From: Secundilactobacillus folii
GTDB taxonomy: Bacteria; Bacillota; Bacilli; Lactobacillales; Lactobacillaceae
Assembly: GCF_009720675.1 (NCBI RefSeq)
Contig: NZ_WNJO01000019.1
Coordinates: 1-33,738 of the forward strand
Length of the DNA stretch: 33,738 nucleotides
Reading direction: 5' to 3'
In this document: positions 3,898 to 29,043 of the stretch, piece after piece
Numbering within the stretch: the stretch's first letter is position 1
Layout: each line of letters opens with the position of its first letter
Notes under the pieces: generated by a model
What the model saw: the letters and a program-made list of their open reading frames with translations, nothing else
Databases searched by the model: none
Told to the model about the DNA's origin: nothing
Program-made: the position numbers and the translations under genes

Positions 3898-3903
3898 AGG
3901 TAT

Positions 3904-4098
3904 GCGATGAGTCGAGAATATCACGCTGCTAGCAATAGCAGTTTGCGCAAGCAACTAGGTGATTTTTTTGCACAGCAGGCAATGTAACACCGCCGGATTT
4001 GCGGCTGCCTTGGTTCAAGGGAAATGTGGATTTCTAAGAACCCATTTAACGTCAGTTAAGTGGCTGTATGGAGCGTTCCAGAAATGGAGCGCTTTTTT
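3904..4098 (+). ncRNA. Unassigned structured RNA, about 195 nt
   Basis: A non-coding stretch bounded by its own promoter and intrinsic terminator. Visible helices in order: ATCAC/GTGAT (3920-3924/3959-3963) closing a three-way junction. Inside it are hairpins CTGCTA-GCAA-TAGCAG (3926-3941) and TTGC-GCAA-GCAA (3943-3954), both with GNRA loops. Next come AGGCA/TGCCT around CCGC/GCGG (3977-4010), GGTTC/GAACC around GAAAT/ATTTC (4012-4042), and the 8-bp hairpin CATTTAAC-GTCA-GTTAAGTG (4043-4062), then the terminator. It lacks the SRP S-domain sequence, the RNase P core and a tmRNA acceptor arm, and it does not fold as the single long rod expected of 6S RNA. There is no convincing reading frame. 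It ends before the met T-box promoter, so it is separate from metI-metC. Confidence 0.6.
4072..4098 (+). terminator. Terminator of the structured RNA
   Basis: GCGTTCCA-GAAA-TGGAGCGC followed by six T: an 8-bp stem with one G-U pair and a GAAA tetraloop. Confidence 0.88.
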
Positions 4099-20823: not shown

Positions 20824-20880
20824 CAAAAAAATCCGCCCATAACATAAACGCCATAATTAGCGTTTAGTTAAGGACGGATA
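20824..20880 (-). terminator. T-box attenuator terminator before trpD
   Basis: On the minus strand TCCGTCC...GGGCGGA encloses TAAACGC...GCGTTTA, followed by seven T. Confidence 0.9.
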
Positions 20881-21042
20881 TAACTTCCGCGGTGCCACCT
20901 TAATTTGATGCCGGGACTTCTCCCGCACATCACCCTTAGCGAGATGCGTATTCACATCTCCGACAACTGACGTATGTCTGTACGTTTCTTGGTAGTTGGG
21001 TGTGGACGCTTCGGCAAAAGGCAACATTGCCGAAACGTGTTC

Positions 21043-21142
21043 GATGAGGCAATTTCCTCCTGTGTAAGGGACTTAAACCAAAAATCCAAACCCGGGATTT
21101 TCCGTTTAAGTCCCTTACACTCCGGAAATTAGACGCCTCATC
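21043..21142 (-). repeat. Long palindromic hairpin inside the trpD T-box leader
   Basis: Arms: GATGAGGC/GCCTCATC, AATTTCC/GGAAATT, then a perfect 17-bp GTGTAAGGGACTTAAAC / GTTTAAGTCCCTTACAC (21062-21078/21104-21120). The 25-nt loop contains AAAATCCAAACCCGGGATTT. The whole inner palindrome recurs unchanged at 23813-23871. Confidence 0.88.
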
Positions 21143-21288
21143 TCACACTCTTTCACAAGAACCCTCTGTGGTCCATTTAACTACCTGCGTTCGGTCGCAC
21201 TCTCAGCTCCGGCGGCTCTCTTTACGTGCACAATAGTCTTGATCTCCACATCATTGGTTTGTATGAGCGAATTTATTTGATTGGCATA

Positions 21289-23578: not shown

Positions 23579-23635
23579 CAAAAAAATCCGCCCATAACAT
23601 TCACGCTAAAACTAGCGCTTAGTTAAGGACGGAGT
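23579..23635 (-). terminator. T-box attenuator terminator before trpE
   Basis: On the minus strand TCCGTCC...GGGCGGA encloses AAGCGCTAG...TAGCGTGA, followed by seven T. Confidence 0.9.
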
Positions 23636-23793
23636 TTTCTTCCGCGGTGCCACCTTAATTTGATGCCGGGACCTCTCCCGCACATCACCCTTAGCGAGAT
23701 GCGTATTCACATCTCCGACAACTGACGTATGTCTGTACGTTTCTTGGTAGTTGGGTGTGGGCACGTTTTTGGCTACCTAGCCGAAACGTGTTC

Positions 23794-23893
23794 GATGAGG
23801 CAATTTCCTCCTGTGTAAGGGACTTAAACCAAAAATCCAAACCCGGGATTTTCCGTTTAAGTCCCTTACACTCCGGAAATTAAACGCCTCATC
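23794..23893 (-). repeat. Long palindromic hairpin inside the trpE T-box leader
   Basis: The second copy of the palindrome at 21043-21142: GATGAGGC/GCCTCATC and AATTTCC/GGAAATT around the same 17-bp stem (23813-23829/23855-23871) and the same 25-nt loop. Confidence 0.88.
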
Positions 23894-24037
23894 TCACACT
23901 CTTTCACAAGAACCCTCTGTGGTCCATTTAACTACCTGCGTTCGGTCGCACTCTCAGCTCCGGCGGCTCTCTTTACGTGCACAATAGTCTTGATCTCCAC
24001 ATCACTGGTTTGTATGGACGGTGTTTAATTGGCACTT

Positions 24038-24626: not shown

Positions 24627-24655
24627 TTGACAGACGATTTCTAATAGTTTAAAGT
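24627..24655 (+). promoter_or_regulatory. Promoter of the aro operon
   Basis: TTGACA (24627-24632), a 17-nt spacer, then TAAAGT (24650-24655). Transcription should start near 24662, leaving a leader of about 325 nt before aroE. Confidence 0.75.
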
Positions 24656-24702
24656 CTTAGACAACAAAAGCAATTCAAAAATGTTTAAAGGAGTTACACA
24701 TT

Positions 24703-24768
24703 ATGATTCTGAAATCGCAAGTCTTAAACCGACAATCTAATCGATTTAGCTACTATTGGTCAAAGTAG
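24703..24768 (+). CDS. Aromatic leader peptide of the aro operon (21 residues)
   Basis: A short ORF with a strong ribosome site, AAAGGAG (24687-24693), nine bases before its ATG. The peptide begins MILKSQVLNRQSN and ends RFSYYWSK. One Phe, two Tyr and one Trp codon thus fall within five codons at the end (TTT AGC TAC TAT TGG, 24745-24759). Such clustering of codons for the pathway's end products is the hallmark of attenuator leader peptides. aroE, DAHP synthase and aroB follow, which serve all three aromatic amino acids. The Tyr-Tyr-Trp codons are also one arm of an RNA helix (see the attenuator entry). Translation itself has not been shown. Confidence 0.78.
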   Translation: MILKSQVLNRQSNRFSYYWSK

Positions 24769-24962
24769 TGTCTACGCCCTACAGGTTGCAGACACTCATC
24801 TGCAATCTGTGCGGCCAATAGTATTTCAGCATCATTTGCCGGTCACACAGTTAAGGTTTTCAAAACACTGTGTGACACGGAAAGCTCCGTTGTTATAAAC
24901 TTGACGACTAAACGTCTCGCAGTGTTTTGTGAAAGCAAAGCATTGCGAGACGTTTTTCTTTT
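24751..24962 (+). promoter_or_regulatory. Candidate ribosome-mediated attenuator of aroE-DAHP synthase-aroB
   Basis: Helices visible: A, TACTATTGGTC (24751-24761) with GGCCAATAGTA (24813-24823). B, AGTGTCT (24767-24773) with AGACACT (24790-24796), exclusive with C, ACAGGTTGCAGA (24781-24792) with TCTGCAATCTGT (24799-24810). D, GTCACACAGT (24842-24851) with ACTGTGTGAC (24867-24876). Antiterminator, CAAAACACTG (24861-24870) with CAGTGTTTTG (24920-24929), exclusive with both D and the terminator. The region 24807-24816 can also pair with 24841-24850 (nine of ten), which would break D. A stalled ribosome would mask the left arm of A, free this region, and shift the chain toward antitermination. 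No T-box core is present. The helices are seen; the switching order is inference. Confidence 0.7.
24910..24962 (+). terminator. Attenuator terminator before aroE
   Basis: AAACGTCTCGCA pairs perfectly with TGCGAGACGTTT (24910-24921/24944-24955). The stem continues inward with GTGTTTTGT/GCAAAGCAT, giving 21 uninterrupted pairs (three G-U) and a GAAA loop, then TTCTTTT. It lies 25 nt before the aroE start, so it must be bypassed for expression. Confidence 0.9.
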
Positions 24963-24986: not shown

Positions 24987-25844
24987 TTGGTTGACGCACA
25001 CACAAGTTTATATGGTTTGATGGCGAATCCCGCGACACACAGTTTGTCGCCTGTGATTTATAACACGACATTTCAAGAATTAGGTCTGAACAGCGTTTAC
25101 CTAGCATTTAACGTCACACCGGATCACTTTGACGAGGCCGCTCATGCAATCAGAGCTTTACCGATTAGGGGAATCAACCTGTCAATGCCATACAAGCAAA
25201 CGATTATGGCTGCTCTAGACGAAATTCGGCCGACTGCTAAGCAACTTAACGCCGTCAACACTGTTATCAATCGTGATGGTTATCTGGTTGGCGATAATAC
25301 CGATGGCGAAGGCTTTGTTAAATCGTTGCAAGAAGCGGAGGTCTCCGTCAATGACAAGCAAGTGGCGGTTCTAGGTGCTGGTGGTGCTGGCCGAGCGGTC
25401 ATTTTAGCCACTGCGCAGGCGGGGGCCAACGTCACGGTATTTAAACGCCAAAACGATACCTTTGAGGCCATTAAGTCTCAAGTTACAGGCTGGTCACCGC
25501 ACATTAACGTGGTGCCATATGAGGACGAAGGCCAGATGAAAAAGGTATTGGCAGCTGCCGATGTCGTGGTCAATACCACTAATGTTGGGATGGCCGGTGA
25601 TCAGCATATACCGGTCTCGCAACCAGTCTTAAAGGTTTTGCACCCCGGTCAACTGGTTGCTGATGTCATCTACGCACCGCTTGAGACACCGTTTCTGGCG
25701 CGGGCGAGATTGATTGGCTGCCAAACAATGAATGGCATCGGCATGTTAGTGCATCAGGCGGCGGGCGCATTTCAACGCTGGACCAACCAACAGATGCCCA
25801 TTGAAACTGTTAAAAACGTGATTCAACAACAACTTGAAGAATAA
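24987..25844 (+). CDS. aroE: Shikimate dehydrogenase
   Basis: It reduces 3-dehydroshikimate to shikimate with NADPH. The 285-residue protein has the substrate-site SLSPVIYN, the catalytic lysine in NLSMPYKQTI, AVNTVINRDG, the second catalytic residue in DNTDGEGF, and the nucleotide-binding GAGGAGRAVI. The C-terminal GCQTMNGIGMLVHQAAGAFQ closes the fold. The start is taken as TTG at 24987, seven bases after AGGGGTGA; the next ATG (25017-25019 region) would cut into the first strand. It is the first gene after the attenuator. Confidence 0.94.
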   Translation: MVDAHTSLYGLMANPATHSLSPVIYNTTFQELGLNSVYLAFNVTPDHFDEAAHAIRALPIRGINLSMPYKQTIMAALDEIRPTAKQLNAVNTVINRDGYLVGDNTDGEGFVKSLQEAEVSVNDKQVAVLGAGGAGRAVILATAQAGANVTVFKRQNDTFEAIKSQVTGWSPHINVVPYEDEGQMKKVLAAADVVVNTTNVGMAGDQHIPVSQPVLKVLHPGQLVADVIYAPLETPFLARARLIGCQTMNGIGMLVHQAAGAFQRWTNQQMPIETVKNVIQQQLEE

Positions 25845-25863: not shown

Positions 25864-26880
25864 ATGATTATTGTATTAAATCGAAACGACCAAAACACCA
25901 TTGACGAACTTCAGGAACACTTCGGTAACAACCACGACATTTTTGTCCATCATAATCGGGTAGCCGTGCAAGGAATCACTCGTGATGACTTATCTGACAG
26001 TGAAAAATCTGCCGCTGTTGAGATCATTGAAGATGTGCCGGCGGCCGTACAGGGCAGTCGAGTATTTCACCCCGAAGACACTATCATCCGGACAAAGCAC
26101 AGCATGATCGGCGGCGATAACTTCACGATGATGGCTGGCCCATGTTCAGTGGAGTCTGAAGAACACATCACCCGAATGGCAGCCGTCGCAAAGGCTAATG
26201 GCGCAACGGTTCTGCGTGGTGGTGCCTTTAAACCGCGGACCTCACCATACTCATTCCAAGGTCTTGGTGAAGAGGGTCTCAGATTCCTCCGTCGCGCAGC
26301 CGACCAGTACAACATGGACGTCGTGACCGAAGTAATGGACGATGAACACGTGGAAATGGTTGGCAAGTACACGGATATTTTCCAAATTGGCGCTCGTAAC
26401 ATGCAGAACTTCTCGTTACTAAAAGCGGTTGGCCGAACCAATATTCCAGTGATGTTAAAGCGGGGTATGTCGGCAACGGTGGACGATGTGCTGAACGCTT
26501 CTGAGTACATTGCGGCTGGCGGCAACCATAACATTATGATTGCTGAACGCGGAATTCGAACTTTTGATAATAAATACACGCGCAACACAATGGACGCCGG
26601 CGTAGTCCCTGTTCTCCAGAAACTGACCCACTACCCCGTCATCATCGACCCAAGTCATGCGGCTGGCCACACAGAATTTGTGACCCCATTGGGATTAGCT
26701 GGAGTTGCTGCTGGTGCTTCAGGATTGGTCGTTGAGATTCATGATGATCCTGCCCACGCCCTGTCAGACGGGCCACAAGCATTGCTGCCAGAACAATTCA
26801 AAGAACTGTCAGATAAAGCTTTCGCAATTCGTGATTTACTCACTGAAATGCCTGCTGAACAGGCGGAAGCGGGGCGCTAG
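25864..26880 (+). CDS. aroF: DAHP synthase, type I-beta with ferredoxin-like regulatory domain
   Basis: It condenses phosphoenolpyruvate and erythrose 4-phosphate, the first step of aromatic synthesis. The 338-residue length equals that of the Thermotoga enzyme. An N-terminal ferredoxin-like domain (about residues 1-70), which mediates feedback by aromatic amino acids in that enzyme, precedes the barrel. Barrel motifs: MAGPCSVES, RGGAFKPRTSPYSFQG, IGARNMQNF, LKRGM, IAERGIRTF, DPSHAAGH, VEIHDDP. The start is the ATG after GTGAGGATG; the frame from 25834 has no ribosome site. It lies 19 nt after aroE. The gene symbol varies between species (aroF, aroG, aroA). Confidence 0.93.
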   Translation: MIIVLNRNDQNTIDELQEHFGNNHDIFVHHNRVAVQGITRDDLSDSEKSAAVEIIEDVPAAVQGSRVFHPEDTIIRTKHSMIGGDNFTMMAGPCSVESEEHITRMAAVAKANGATVLRGGAFKPRTSPYSFQGLGEEGLRFLRRAADQYNMDVVTEVMDDEHVEMVGKYTDIFQIGARNMQNFSLLKAVGRTNIPVMLKRGMSATVDDVLNASEYIAAGGNHNIMIAERGIRTFDNKYTRNTMDAGVVPVLQKLTHYPVIIDPSHAAGHTEFVTPLGLAGVAAGASGLVVEIHDDPAHALSDGPQALLPEQFKELSDKAFAIRDLLTEMPAEQAEAGR

Positions 26881-26881
26881 A

Positions 26882-27958
26882 ATGACAACAGTTTCTGTGA
26901 ACTTACCGGCGACCCACTACGACGTTTTGATCGATCGGGGCCTGTTAGATTCAGTGGGTTCGCTGGTCGCCAAACAGTGGTCACCGCGCAAAATTGCGCT
27001 GGTCAGTGACGATAATGTTGCGCCACTGTATCAAGAGCGGGTCGCCGCTTCGTTGGCTGCTGCCGGTTTTGATGTTCATCGCTATGTCTTTCCGGCTGGT
27101 GAGGCCTCAAAGTCTTTGACCGTTCTAGCTGAATTAGTGCGTCAAATGGCTGCGGATACCTTCAACCGTGATGATAGCGTGATTGCTTTAGGCGGCGGCG
27201 TGACTGGTGATTTAGCCGGCTTACTGGCTGCAACCTACATGCGCGGGCTGCATTTTATCCAAATTCCAACCTCACTGTTGTCACAAGTGGATAGTTCAGT
27301 TGGGGGTAAAACAGCCGTTGACCTCGATAACATTAAAAATATTATCGGCGCTTTTTATGAACCGGACCTAGTCATCGTTGACCCGAACACGTTGGGTACC
27401 ATGACGCAGCGAGATTTGGTTGAAGGCTACGGTGAGATCGTTAAGACGGCGGCATTGGAAGGTGGTGAATTTTGGCAACTGATCGAAACCATCGACAGCC
27501 CGGCAGAGCTGATCAGCAATGCGCCGGAATTAAGTGCCCGTTCCATTCACTACAAAGCCTCGGTCGTGATGGCTGATGAAACCGAAAGTGGCACGCGTCA
27601 ACTGTTGAACTTCGGGCACACCATTGGCCACGCCGTTGAGGCATTGGCGAACGGTGCGCTACGGCATGGCGAAGCGGTCAGCATCGGAACGGTCGCCATT
27701 ATGCGGGTGTTTGAAGATGCTGGCTTAGCTGAAAAAGGCATCACATCAAAGCTGCGAGACCGTTTTGCGGCAGTTGGCTTGCCGGTGACGGATCCGTTAT
27801 TGAACTCGCCACAAGTATTGGACAAGGTCAAAAACGACAAAAAAAACCGTCACGGACATCTGAATCTGGTTTACCTAACGGCCATTGGGCATCCAGAGAT
27901 CAAGTCGATTCCAAGCAGTGAGATTGCTTCATTTTTAAACCTATCGGTGACGAACTGA
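26882..27958 (+). CDS. aroB: 3-Dehydroquinate synthase
   Basis: It cyclises DAHP to 3-dehydroquinate using NAD and a divalent metal. The 358-residue protein has the NAD-binding ALGGGVTGDLAGLLAATYMR, IPTSLLSQVDSSVGGKTAVD, the metal ligands in VEGYGEIVKTA, LLNFGHTIGHAVE and RHGEAVSIG. Its ATG is one base after the DAHP synthase stop; the longer frame from 26705 overlaps that gene and is rejected. It is the last gene of the operon, since a terminator follows. The remaining shikimate genes (aroD, aroK, aroA, aroC) are not in the window. Confidence 0.96.
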   Translation: MTTVSVNLPATHYDVLIDRGLLDSVGSLVAKQWSPRKIALVSDDNVAPLYQERVAASLAAAGFDVHRYVFPAGEASKSLTVLAELVRQMAADTFNRDDSVIALGGGVTGDLAGLLAATYMRGLHFIQIPTSLLSQVDSSVGGKTAVDLDNIKNIIGAFYEPDLVIVDPNTLGTMTQRDLVEGYGEIVKTAALEGGEFWQLIETIDSPAELISNAPELSARSIHYKASVVMADETESGTRQLLNFGHTIGHAVEALANGALRHGEAVSIGTVAIMRVFEDAGLAEKGITSKLRDRFAAVGLPVTDPLLNSPQVLDKVKNDKKNRHGHLNLVYLTAIGHPEIKSIPSSEIASFLNLSVTN

Positions 27959-28137: not shown

Positions 28138-28986
28138 CTATTTCACCAAATAAACCTGATCATGGATCAAGTCAAACTGGGTAAAGTGCTGATTCAAGTT
28201 TTTAACGTCAGGGGTGTTCAGGAGTTTTGCATGCTGCCAGAAGGTCTTTGAATCCGTAGCACCATCCTTTTCGCCGATCACAATAAAATCATAATTCTTG
28301 TCAGCTGCCCGAATCTGCTGCAGCAGCTGCCAGTCGATATCAAGGCCATCTGGCGACCAGACCATGATGATCACGTTAACCTGATCCCTGTATTTGTCGA
28401 AAGCCTCACTGGCCGTCAGTTTTTCAACCGTTGTGACTGGGTGCTTGCCAGTTTCGTTTTCCTTTGTCCAGTCCTTGGAGTCAGTGGTAAATACCGTTTG
28501 GTGGTTATCACGCACGCCTTTTGACAGATAGCCATTACCCGCCATAACCTCCAGCGTTGGCCGACCATGGATAAATTCAGCCACGTCCTTTGCGACCGGA
28601 GCGGAAATATACGCCCACATGCCGTAAGTGGTTTCTAAATAATCCCTGAAGTTACGCAGTTTCTTATCAAGATCTGGCAATGCATCGGATAATTCATTCC
28701 AGCGCCGGTCACCTTCTGGGTCGCCAGCTGGGAACTTAGCGTTGAGCTGCTGGTAGATAACGTCTTGCGTGTCGTCTGGCAGTAATAATTTTGGCAACGT
28801 CTGTGGCAATAGTCTCCGTTTTAATAAGCGGTCTGCCTGCAAGACATTATTGATTAGTATCCTAATAGTCGGAAAATCCGCAAAAAGGTCGTTGTAGTGA
28901 GTCATAGTCGCAATGTAGTCATTGGCTTGTGTAGGCTTCTTCGAGCGCGCTATTTTGAGTAATCTTTTCTTTTGTTTCGGGTTCAA
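28138..28986 (-). CDS. SAM-dependent methyltransferase-like protein
   Basis: A 283-residue protein. An N-terminal helical part of about 140 residues (basic start NPKQKKRLLKIARSKKP) precedes a Rossmann-type domain. The motif LEVMAGNGYLSKGV resembles methyltransferase motif I (E-x-x-x-G-x-G), and TTDSKDW would follow as the acidic end of strand 2. VIIMVWSPDGLD sits where motif IV is expected, but no NPPY or DPPY is visible, so the substrate is unknown and the activity is inferred. The start is TTG at 28986, because GGAGG lies seven bases upstream; earlier ATGs lie inside an intergenic hairpin. It probably follows the XRE regulator in one transcript. Confidence 0.75.
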   Translation of the reverse strand: MNPKQKKRLLKIARSKKPTQANDYIATMTHYNDLFADFPTIRILINNVLQADRLLKRRLLPQTLPKLLLPDDTQDVIYQQLNAKFPAGDPEGDRRWNELSDALPDLDKKLRNFRDYLETTYGMWAYISAPVAKDVAEFIHGRPTLEVMAGNGYLSKGVRDNHQTVFTTDSKDWTKENETGKHPVTTVEKLTASEAFDKYRDQVNVIIMVWSPDGLDIDWQLLQQIRAADKNYDFIVIGEKDGATDSKTFWQHAKLLNTPDVKNLNQHFTQFDLIHDQVYLVK

Positions 28987-29006
28987 GTTTTTGCCTCCAA
29001 TCATTA

Positions 29007-29043
29007 AACGCGTCATCCAGCCAATTGGTATGAATGACGCGTT
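29007..29043. repeat. Inverted repeat between the XRE and methyltransferase-like genes
   Basis: AACGCGTCAT (29007-29016) and ATGACGCGTT (29034-29043) are perfect 10-bp arms around a 17-nt loop containing CCAATTGG. There is no T-run, so it is more likely an operator or mRNA hairpin than a terminator. Confidence 0.65.

What the first reader, a model, noticed from the sequence alone, without database searches (positions are those of the whole stretch)
24627..24768. A leader peptide with Phe, Tyr and Trp codons controls the common aromatic pathway
A 21-codon ORF with a strong ribosome site sits between a good promoter and a 21-bp terminator before aroE. Its end reads F-S-Y-Y-W, so codons for all three pathway end products lie within five codons. 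Attenuation by leader peptides is well known in proteobacteria, usually for one amino acid per operon. Gram-positive relatives normally use T-boxes, and none is present here although two lie next door on trp. A peptide that senses shortage of any aromatic amino acid would suit the shared shikimate trunk. I know of no described example in lactobacilli, but cannot search.
Basis: partly seen in the sequence, partly recalled or inferred. Interest (0 to 1): 0.92.

Follow-up and report, generated by a model that had tools for sequence, protein, structure and literature searches.

The report
Aromatic-sensing attenuator of lactobacillus aro operons
Before the genes for the shared first steps of aromatic amino acid synthesis lies a tiny gene whose codons for phenylalanine, tyrosine and tryptophan, with the RNA folds behind it, very probably work as a shortage sensor, and related versions sit before the same pathway in many other lactobacilli.

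Summary
In detail: a 21-codon ORF (24703-24768, MILKSQVLNRQSNRFSYYWSK) with a good ribosome site lies between a promoter and a 21-bp terminator ahead of aroE-DAHP synthase-aroB, without a T-box on that strand. Comparison supports attenuation. All 13 genomes of the genus with this operon, the window's included, keep NRFSYYW. In 16 further Lactobacillaceae genera other leaders (NRFYYYWF, NSYYYYWFT, VLFYSYW, TRYYWFS, SYYYYQPR) precede DAHP-synthase operons, often led by aroE or transketolase. Of 79 leaders, chosen for dense aromatic codons, 75 hold Phe, Tyr and Trp in the last ten. The aromatic codons pair with a downstream strand; 8 of 10 pairs show double compensatory changes over 13 genera. 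Mutually exclusive helices lead to the terminator. A covariance model finds the element in 102 of 397 family genomes (95 of the 148 with this DAHP synthase) and only in the family in a 365-genome sample of the order. Rfam lacks it. Attenuation is known, even with a Phe-Tyr-Phe leader on C. glutamicum aroF, so this is a new variant of a known kind. Sensing of all three amino acids is inferred, and the window's own copy gives a weak switch in folding models.

The parts
24627..24655 (+). sigma-70-type promoter TTGACA-17-TAAAGT
   Evidence: TTGACA invariant in the 13 genomes aligned
24687..24693 (+). Shine-Dalgarno AAAGGAG of the leader ORF
24703..24768 (+). leader peptide ORF MILKSQVLNRQSNRFSYYWSK, stop included
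   Evidence: conserved in 13 of 13 genomes of the genus with the operon, own included
24745..24759 (+). codons Phe-Ser-Tyr-Tyr-Trp
24751..24761 (+). strand 1: TACTATTGGTC, aromatic codons, pairs with strand 2
24768..24773 (+). strand A: GTGTCT at and behind the leader stop, pairs with B
24782..24795 (+). strand B: CAGGTTGCAGACAC, pairs either with A or with C
24799..24809 (+). strand C: TCTGCAATCTG, pairs with B
24807..24823 (+). strand 2: CTGTGCGGCCAATAGTA, pairs with strand 1 (GGCCAATAGTA) or with strand 3 (CTGTGCGGCC)
24840..24850 (+). strand 3: CGGTCACACAG, pairs with 2 or with 4
24861..24875 (+). strand 4: CAAAACACTGTGTGA, pairs with 3 or with 5 (antiterminator)
24910..24955 (+). strands 5 and 6: intrinsic terminator, 21 bp, followed by a T-rich tail
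24987..25844 (+). aroE, shikimate dehydrogenase (TTG start)
   Evidence: NCBIfam NF001319 and TIGR00507 above cut-off, Pfam
25864..26880 (+). DAHP synthase (aroF type, TIGR01361)
26882..27958 (+). aroB, 3-dehydroquinate synthase
23622..24014 (-). T-box-like leader of trpE (neighbouring, divergent)
   Evidence: E 8.7e-11, below gathering score; trpE named
20867..21263 (-). second T-box-like leader inside the trp cluster, before a gene that reads as trpD
   Evidence: E 8.4e-11, below gathering score; trpD read, not tested

Best explanation
The element is a ribosome-mediated transcription attenuator of the aroE-DAHP synthase-aroB operon. Transcription starts just behind 24655 and a ribosome translates the short leader. 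If charged tRNA for Phe, Tyr or Trp is short, the ribosome waits on the FSYYW codons and covers strand 1. Strand A is then free and pairs with B, strand 2 is free and pairs with 3, strand 4 is left to pair with 5, the terminator cannot form, and the operon is read. If aromatic amino acids are plentiful, the ribosome runs to the stop codon and covers A. B then pairs with C and, on release, the aromatic codons (1) pair with 2, 3 pairs with 4, and the 5:6 terminator stops transcription; an untranslated leader also ends in termination. The same element in varied form controls the shikimate trunk in a large part of the Lactobacillaceae. Shown: ORF, codons, ribosome site, terminator, conservation, and covariation of 1:2, B:C and (more weakly) A:B. 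Inferred: translation, stalling, order of folding, read-through, and that each of the three amino acids is sensed.
For: 13 of 13 genomes of the genus with this operon (own included) keep the ORF ending in NRFSYYW. Other genera keep the aromatic block with different peptides. 75 of 79 leaders, selected for at least four aromatic residues in six codons, hold F, Y and W in the last ten. The aromatic codons pair with the downstream spacer better than 40 permuted spacers at p<=0.05 in 66 of 80 leaders, against 17 of 80 for the first 24 nt of the same ORFs. On 34 representatives RNAalifold chose helix 1:2 plus B:C, 15 of 17 pairs with double changes; helix 1:2 has 97.1% of cells paired and 8 of 10 pairs with changes on both sides; the whole structure 92.7% paired against 23-46% when slid, 0 of 500 shuffles reach it. 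The rival helix A:B is 87.1% paired against 37-55% when slid. Folding at the end of strand 3: 2:3 has 0.04 expected pairs in the free RNA, 2.2 with a ribosome stalled at codon 3, 3.7 at the last and 6.4 at the best aromatic codon (79 leaders). Model R1: 102 of 397 family genomes, 95 of the 148 with this DAHP synthase, 7 of the 249 without.
Against: In the window's own sequence the switch is weak in the model: 2:3 reaches only 0.73 expected pairs, and with the ribosome on the second Tyr codon the A:B + 2:3 state lies 5.9 kcal/mol above the best fold, although it is the best fold in 6 of the 12 genomes of the genus computed (G011 not computed). A first, cruder equilibrium measure of antitermination gave no clear codon dependence. 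In several g3 and g30 leaders a stall at codon 3 frees strand 2 as well as an aromatic stall does, and only 34 of 79 leaders gain a pair or more at the last aromatic codon over codon 3. In the 7 of 12 genus members where any codon exceeds two pairs, a Trp stall gives less than the best Tyr stall; in the other five, own included, all values are below 1.5 and Trp is the highest. Three of four g6 leaders have no Trp codon. The representatives were picked by hand, leaving out g12 and g13 and weak-helix g14 leaders, and were cut at the ends of the helix already found. Shuffles for A:B reach its number of doubly changed pairs in 103 of 500. Leaders share ancestry, so counts are not independent trials. 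No expression data exist here.
Confidence: 0.9

Rival explanations
1. Same attenuator, but it senses mainly one amino acid (Tyr, or Phe and Tyr); the other aromatic codons are passengers kept by the 1:2 helix or by chance.
For: Tyr is by far the commonest leader residue (16.6% against F 8.8% and W 5.8%), and residue triples with Tyr but without Trp score as high as F+Y+W in the ORF scan. In the 7 of 12 genus members with a clear modelled switch, the best Tyr stall frees strand 2 more than the Trp stall. C. glutamicum aroR (Phe-Tyr-Phe) is reported to respond to Phe, not Tyr (PMC11802643, passages). Three g6 leaders have Gln where others have Trp, with the helix kept.
Against: 75 of 79 leaders keep all three residues, although Trp has one codon and the helix could be kept without it, as g6 shows.
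Confidence: 0.35
2. A nascent-peptide arrest element: the leader peptide itself, not the charging of tRNA, stops the ribosome in response to a free aromatic compound (as TnaC does for tryptophan, recalled).
For: Asn-Arg or Asn-Ser before the aromatic block recurs in many genera, and where Arg stands there its codon is CGA in 48 of 49 leaders.
Against: The N-terminal part drifts, Arg is replaced by Ser, Thr, Gln, Leu or others in several genera, and the block tolerates Tyr/Phe exchange and loss of Trp; arrest peptides usually keep specific residues (recalled).
Confidence: 0.05
3. An RNA-only regulator (a tRNA- or metabolite-binding leader); the ORF is incidental.
For: Strong conserved RNA structure, near-identical nucleotides inside the genus, and a ribosome site that is weak or not recognised in G009, most g17, g24 and G241.
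Against: ATG, ribosome site and in-frame aromatic codons persist together in 15 genera by the filter while nucleotides change, and the length differences inside the ORF in the genus are whole codons. No T-box or other Rfam family on the + strand before aroE, nor at gathering score in 40 further loci apart from T-boxes on the other strand of two g14 loci.
Confidence: 0.03
4. A chance ORF before an ordinary terminator.
For: Short ORFs with ribosome sites are common; terminator-like matches in the region are at chance level and promoter-like ones 2.6 sd above it.
Against: 69 loci on the operon strand against 0 on the opposite strand and compensatory changes through the aromatic codons.
Confidence: 0.01

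Closest known systems
aroR leader of the aroF operon in Corynebacterium glutamicum (Neshat et al. 2014, seen only as described in PMC11802643 and PMC4046766, passages)
   Same: Leader peptide with aromatic codons, attenuation, DAHP synthase operon.
   Different: Actinobacterium; Phe-Tyr-Phe only, no Trp mentioned; reported to answer to Phe and not Tyr. Here Phe, Tyr and Trp codons and another peptide; sequence relation of the RNAs not tested.
uORFC-13-1 motif upstream of aroF in Acholeplasma (PMC8632094, passages)
   Same: uORF plus terminator before DAHP synthase, proposed attenuation.
   Different: Described as coding at least one Phe; Acholeplasma and unassigned environmental sequences only; no three-amino-acid block described in the passages read.
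trp and pheA leader attenuators of Enterobacteria (passages of PMC11802643; details recalled)
   Same: Ribosome position on cognate codons chooses between antiterminator and terminator.
   Different: One amino acid each; here three pathway end products on the shared trunk, and a longer cascade of exclusive helices (1:2, A:B or B:C, 2:3, 3:4, 4:5, 5:6).
Multi-amino-acid leaders such as E. coli ilv and thr (recalled)
   Same: One leader with codons for several end products of a branched pathway.
   Different: Other pathway, other phylum; RNA not compared.
Leader peptides in Firmicutes: S. aureus ilv-leu (PMC5794164), B. cereus and others his (PMC2965389, PMC9413887), all passages
   Same: Leader-peptide attenuation in Gram-positive bacteria.
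   Different: Leu/Ile or His; none aromatic in the passages read.
T-box leaders
   Same: Sense uncharged tRNA and control terminators; sit on the neighbouring trp cluster here.
   Different: No T-box upstream of aroE; sensing here would need translation of a peptide.

Membership tests
Ribosome-mediated transcription attenuator | Short translated ORF with ribosome site and codons for the pathway end products | tested here: met
   (sequence only; translation itself not shown)
Ribosome-mediated transcription attenuator | Intrinsic terminator between leader and first gene | tested here: met
   a candidate found for 75 of 75 ORFs scanned, not all of them convincing
Ribosome-mediated transcription attenuator | Mutually exclusive helices, the first involving the regulatory codons | tested here: met
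   (representatives picked by hand)
Ribosome-mediated transcription attenuator | Antiterminator pairing with the terminator 5' arm | tested here: inconclusive
   duplex z<-2 in 38 of 75; 12-bp 4:5 helix in the window
Ribosome-mediated transcription attenuator | Stalling at the codons favours the antiterminator path | tested here: inconclusive
   last aromatic stall above free by a pair or more in 50 of 79, above codon-3 stall in 34 of 79; weak in the window's own sequence; unclear
Ribosome-mediated transcription attenuator | Read-through changes with amino acid supply | not testable with these tools
   needs expression data
T-box leader | Match to the T-box covariance model | tested here: not met
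   none on the + strand upstream of aroE at E<=5
Any described Rfam family | Match at gathering score | tested here: not met
   window (only RF02840 elsewhere) and 20 + 20 further loci, only T-boxes on the other strand of two g14 loci
C. glutamicum aroR-type attenuator | Sequence homology to aroR | not tested
   record not fetched

The most novel reading that the evidence does not exclude
A homologous, Lactobacillaceae-wide attenuator family acts as an OR gate for shortage of any of the three aromatic amino acids. It has been moved between shikimate-trunk operons (aroE-DAHP synthase-aroB, DAHP synthase-aroB, tkt-aroE-DAHP synthase, aroC-aroA-tyrA) and to an aminotransferase, while trp stays under T-boxes, and it uses a near-invariant CGA codon just before the aromatic block as a pacing site.
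Probability: 0.45. Interest if true: 0.8.

Novelty: new variant of a known kind. Interest (0 to 1): 0.72.

Why it matters
Lactobacillales are taken as T-box territory for amino acid control. A translated leader that reads all three aromatic amino acids and guards the shared trunk in some 17 genera would be a regulatory RNA that Rfam 15 does not hold and that nine searches of open papers did not turn up (listed in Tried and rejected), in a group of industrial and gut bacteria. It would give a direct test bed for how one leader weighs several tRNAs. It also marks a family of tiny genes that annotation can miss: the Nicoliella record lists none there, though that gene table is known to be incomplete.

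Tried and rejected
Chance ORF: rejected by the opposite-strand and shuffle controls and covariation. T-box or known riboswitch: rejected. First equilibrium measure of antitermination by ribosome position: noisy, not used as support. Residue-triple control: does not single out F+Y+W, because Tyr runs dominate. Pattern search NRFSYYW: 19 of 397 genomes; three hits (G219, G234, G310) look like coding sequence of other genes and were set aside by reading. The search for related loci on genome contigs with AroE returned 57 distant relatives and no lactobacillus by title, so no names came from it. Paper searches for this element gave nothing on lactobacilli: (listings, plus passages of nine papers: PMC2965389, PMC1262725, PMC2494555, PMC9413887, PMC8632094, PMC2659441, PMC4046766, PMC11802643, PMC5794164); open PMC papers only. 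Panina et al. 2003 on aromatic regulation in low-GC Gram-positives is known to me only as a citation. Rows set aside: G023 (g10, a false leader) dropped; G085 mis-chosen and G023, G065 doubtful; strand 3 mis-detected, by my reading, in 15 of 19 g14 rows and some others, left in the averages; from the offset table G345, G023, leaders without Trp and any with p>0.25; A3 made of 34 hand-picked representatives, with G345 (listed), all g12 and g13 and the weak-helix g14 leaders left out; the G275 hit of R1 looks spurious. Model R1 finds its own 34 training sequences by construction, its E-values are rough, and searches over 40 genomes used stricter filters.

Full report
WHAT IS THERE. The + strand between the divergent trp cluster and aroE holds, in order, a promoter (24627-24655), a ribosome site (24687-24693), a 21-codon ORF (24703-24768, MILKSQVLNRQSNRFSYYWSK) and a 21-bp terminator (24910-24955). 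The operon behind it is aroE, a DAHP synthase and aroB. The leader RNA folds far better than shuffles (z -9.1). No T-box is found on this strand; two T-box-like leaders, below Rfam's gathering score, lie on the - strand in the trp cluster.

THE GENUS. Of 15 genomes of the genus, 14 encode an AroE relative. One of these, G005, has only a distant relative (38%); 13, the window's included, carry this operon (G009's DAHP synthase match is partial). All 13 keep the leader with the core NRFSYYW; 12 pass the ribosome-site filter and G009 does not. The first residues vary (ILKSQVL, NLKMKAL, TTIT, TENI) and length differs by whole codons. G005 has no such DAHP synthase but carries a leader MTKSTRYYYYWFI before aroC (named), followed by genes that read as aroA, tyrA and a shikimate kinase. 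G008 has none.

THE FAMILY. A DAHP synthase relative (E<=1e-60) was found in 148 of 397 genomes of the family, 26 of 40 genera. I looked at upstream DNA of 119 of these 148 genomes by script, later also G241; some stretches were cut short by contig ends. Leaders with an aromatic block were read in 17 genera before operons with DAHP synthase: NRFYYYW, NRFYFYW, QAYYFW (g14); FYYW, FSYYYQ, SYYYYQPR (g6); FYSYW, YYSFW (g2, g32); NSYYYYWF, NSFYYYWF (g3); NSYFYFWF (g7); RYYWFS, FYAWYAYF (g12, g13); NRFYYYWF (g16, most of g30, part of g38); NSYYYFWFM (g17); SYFYFWFM (G241, g19); RFYYYWF (g22); FSYYW (g24); YYYYWFF, YYYFWFF (g33); NSYYYYWFT (g38); NRFSYYW (g1). In the loci read from g30, g33 and g38 the first gene is a transketolase, then aroE, then DAHP synthase; transketolase makes erythrose 4-phosphate, a DAHP synthase substrate (established knowledge). 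A second class lies before a class I/II aminotransferase in six of seven weak g38 hits (SFYFWYFR) and, with another peptide (WRYYFRFFM), in two g19 genomes; that its substrate is aromatic is inference. One before an MFS transporter in g29 is tentative.

CONTROLS. With strict rules (ATG, at least 5 nt of ribosome site, at least 4 F/Y/W in 6 codons) 69 of 110 loci have such an ORF on the operon strand and 0 on the other, where fewer short ORFs pass (44 against 90); shuffling the residues of the operon-strand ORFs gives at most 27 in 500. Other triples with Tyr score as high, so the clusters are shown to be aromatic, chiefly Tyr, not F+Y+W by that test. 75 of 79 leaders, chosen for dense aromatic residues, contain F, Y and W in the last ten codons; three lack W and one lacks F.

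THE RNA. The aromatic codons (strand 1) are complementary to a strand 44-62 nt further on (median 53). In 66 of 80 leaders this helix beats 40 permuted spacers at p<=0.05, against 17 of 80 for the first 24 nt of the same ORFs; the 14 that do not include seven of g14 and g30 and the false g10 ORF. The changes are instructive: CTATTGG with CCAATAG, CTACTGG with CCAGTAG, CTTTTGG (Tyr to Phe) with CCAAAAG, CTTCTGG with CCAGAAG, and in g6 TTATTATCAACCACGC (Gln in the place of Trp) with GTGTGGTTGATAATAA. In g12 and g13 the helix is shifted to the codons at and behind Trp. On 34 representatives from 13 genera, picked by hand and cut at the helix ends, RNAalifold chose this helix and an inner one. Counted as given, 92.7% of cells pair, against 23-46% for slid versions and 78.9% for shuffles, and 18 of 20 pairs show a change on both sides. 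A helix between the strand behind the stop codon (A) and the middle strand (B), which excludes B:C, is also supported, more weakly: 87.1% paired against 37-55% slid, 4 of 6 pairs with changes on both sides, a number that 103 of 500 shuffles reach. Strand 2 can instead pair with strand 3 (GGTCACACAG or GCCACATAGATG), 3 with 4, and 4 with the 5' arm of the terminator; that last pairing is better than shuffled spacers at z<-2 in 38 of 75.

MECHANISM. Folding the transcript up to the end of strand 3, the free RNA has almost no 2:3 pairing (mean 0.04 pairs over 79 leaders). A ribosome stalled at codon 3 gives 2.2, on the last aromatic codon 3.7, and on the best aromatic codon 6.4 (a maximum over up to six codons). 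The last aromatic stall is above free by a pair or more in 50 of 79 and below in none; it is above the codon-3 stall in 34 of 79, and in several g3 and g30 leaders the codon-3 stall does as well. This is the direction expected of the switch. It is strong in the g3, g30 and g33 rows, in seven of eight g38 rows and in seven of twelve of the genus, and absent or weak elsewhere; strand 3 was mis-detected, by my reading, in 15 of 19 g14 rows. The window's own copy is weak (0.73). With the ribosome on the second Tyr codon the A:B + 2:3 state is the best fold in 6 of 12 genomes of the genus, but 5.9 kcal/mol above the best fold here. Since A and B are transcribed before C, order of synthesis should favour A:B; that is inference. 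A first equilibrium measure showed no clear codon dependence.

DISTRIBUTION. A covariance model of the 1:2 and inner hairpin matches strongly once in each of 14 of 15 genomes of the genus (two weak second matches in G003 and G011), in 102 of 397 genomes of the family, and in 12 of 365 genomes sampled from the order, all 12 in this family (the listing does not say how many of the 365 lie outside it). 95 of the 102 are among the 148 genomes with the DAHP synthase, 7 among the 249 without: G005 (aroC), G110, G288 and G341 (aminotransferase), G154 (MFS), G191 (aroE and a DAHP-synthase-like gene next door that fell below my cut-off) and G275 (probably spurious). The model misses g12 and g13, whose leaders were found by ORF. 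Genera with the DAHP synthase but no leader seen in the 1-5 genomes examined are g4, g8, g10, g15, g20, g25 and g39; g34 is doubtful and g18 was not fetched.

COMPARISON WITH WHAT IS KNOWN. The kind is known: trp and pheA leaders, C. glutamicum aroR on aroF with Phe-Tyr-Phe (passages of PMC11802643 and PMC4046766), a Phe-containing uORF on aroF in Acholeplasma (passages of PMC8632094), and leader peptides in other Firmicutes (passages). New here, as far as these searches go, are the three-amino-acid block, the lineage, the family-wide spread over several aromatic operons, and the RNA, which no Rfam family covers at gathering score. Nine searches of open papers found no description in lactobacilli. 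I file it as a new variant of ribosome-mediated attenuation, on anatomy and covariation, not on a functional test.

Noticed in passing
24742-24744 and the aligned codon in other leaders: When Arg directly precedes the aromatic block its codon is CGA in 48 of 49 leaders (CGA in 10 genera, CGT once in g12), while the codon before it varies (AAT 38, others 11). CGA is also common among the other Arg codons of the leaders (34 of 61), against 29 of 240 Arg codons in 14 window ORFs. Cause unknown; a slow codon that paces the ribosome is one idea.
   Followed up: partly
L265, L283-L285, L287, L288 (g38); L289, L290 (g19): A class I/II aminotransferase gene has its own aromatic leader (SFYFWYFR in g38, WRYYFRFFM in g19), suggesting a small regulon beyond the trunk (family named for L265, L284, L289).
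   Followed up: partly
L291 (G154, g29): Leader MILKSFVVTSFYYDYLFR before an MFS transporter, weak model match (E 0.005).
   Followed up: no
L162 (G063, g13): Two RYYWFS leaders about 1.2 kb apart, both upstream of the DAHP synthase gene.
   Followed up: no
3903-4034 +: Rfam RF02840 (Ref68 / Lacto-3 sRNA) match, 86 bits.
   Followed up: no
41-2398 +: Long surface-protein-like ORF with repeated PTTGVTITKTPDGGYQVGGKTKP units and an LPQTG-like end (sorting motif recalled).
   Followed up: no
28138-29016 -: 291-aa product of an ORF next to the aro operon with no NCBIfam match and only four distant relatives (26-36% identity) in the plasmid collection.
   Followed up: partly
L296 (Nicoliella spurrieriana NZ_CP093360.1): The aroF-aroB operon with its leader lies on a 344-kb replicon listed as a plasmid; no leader is in the listed gene table, which the tool calls incomplete.
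   Followed up: no
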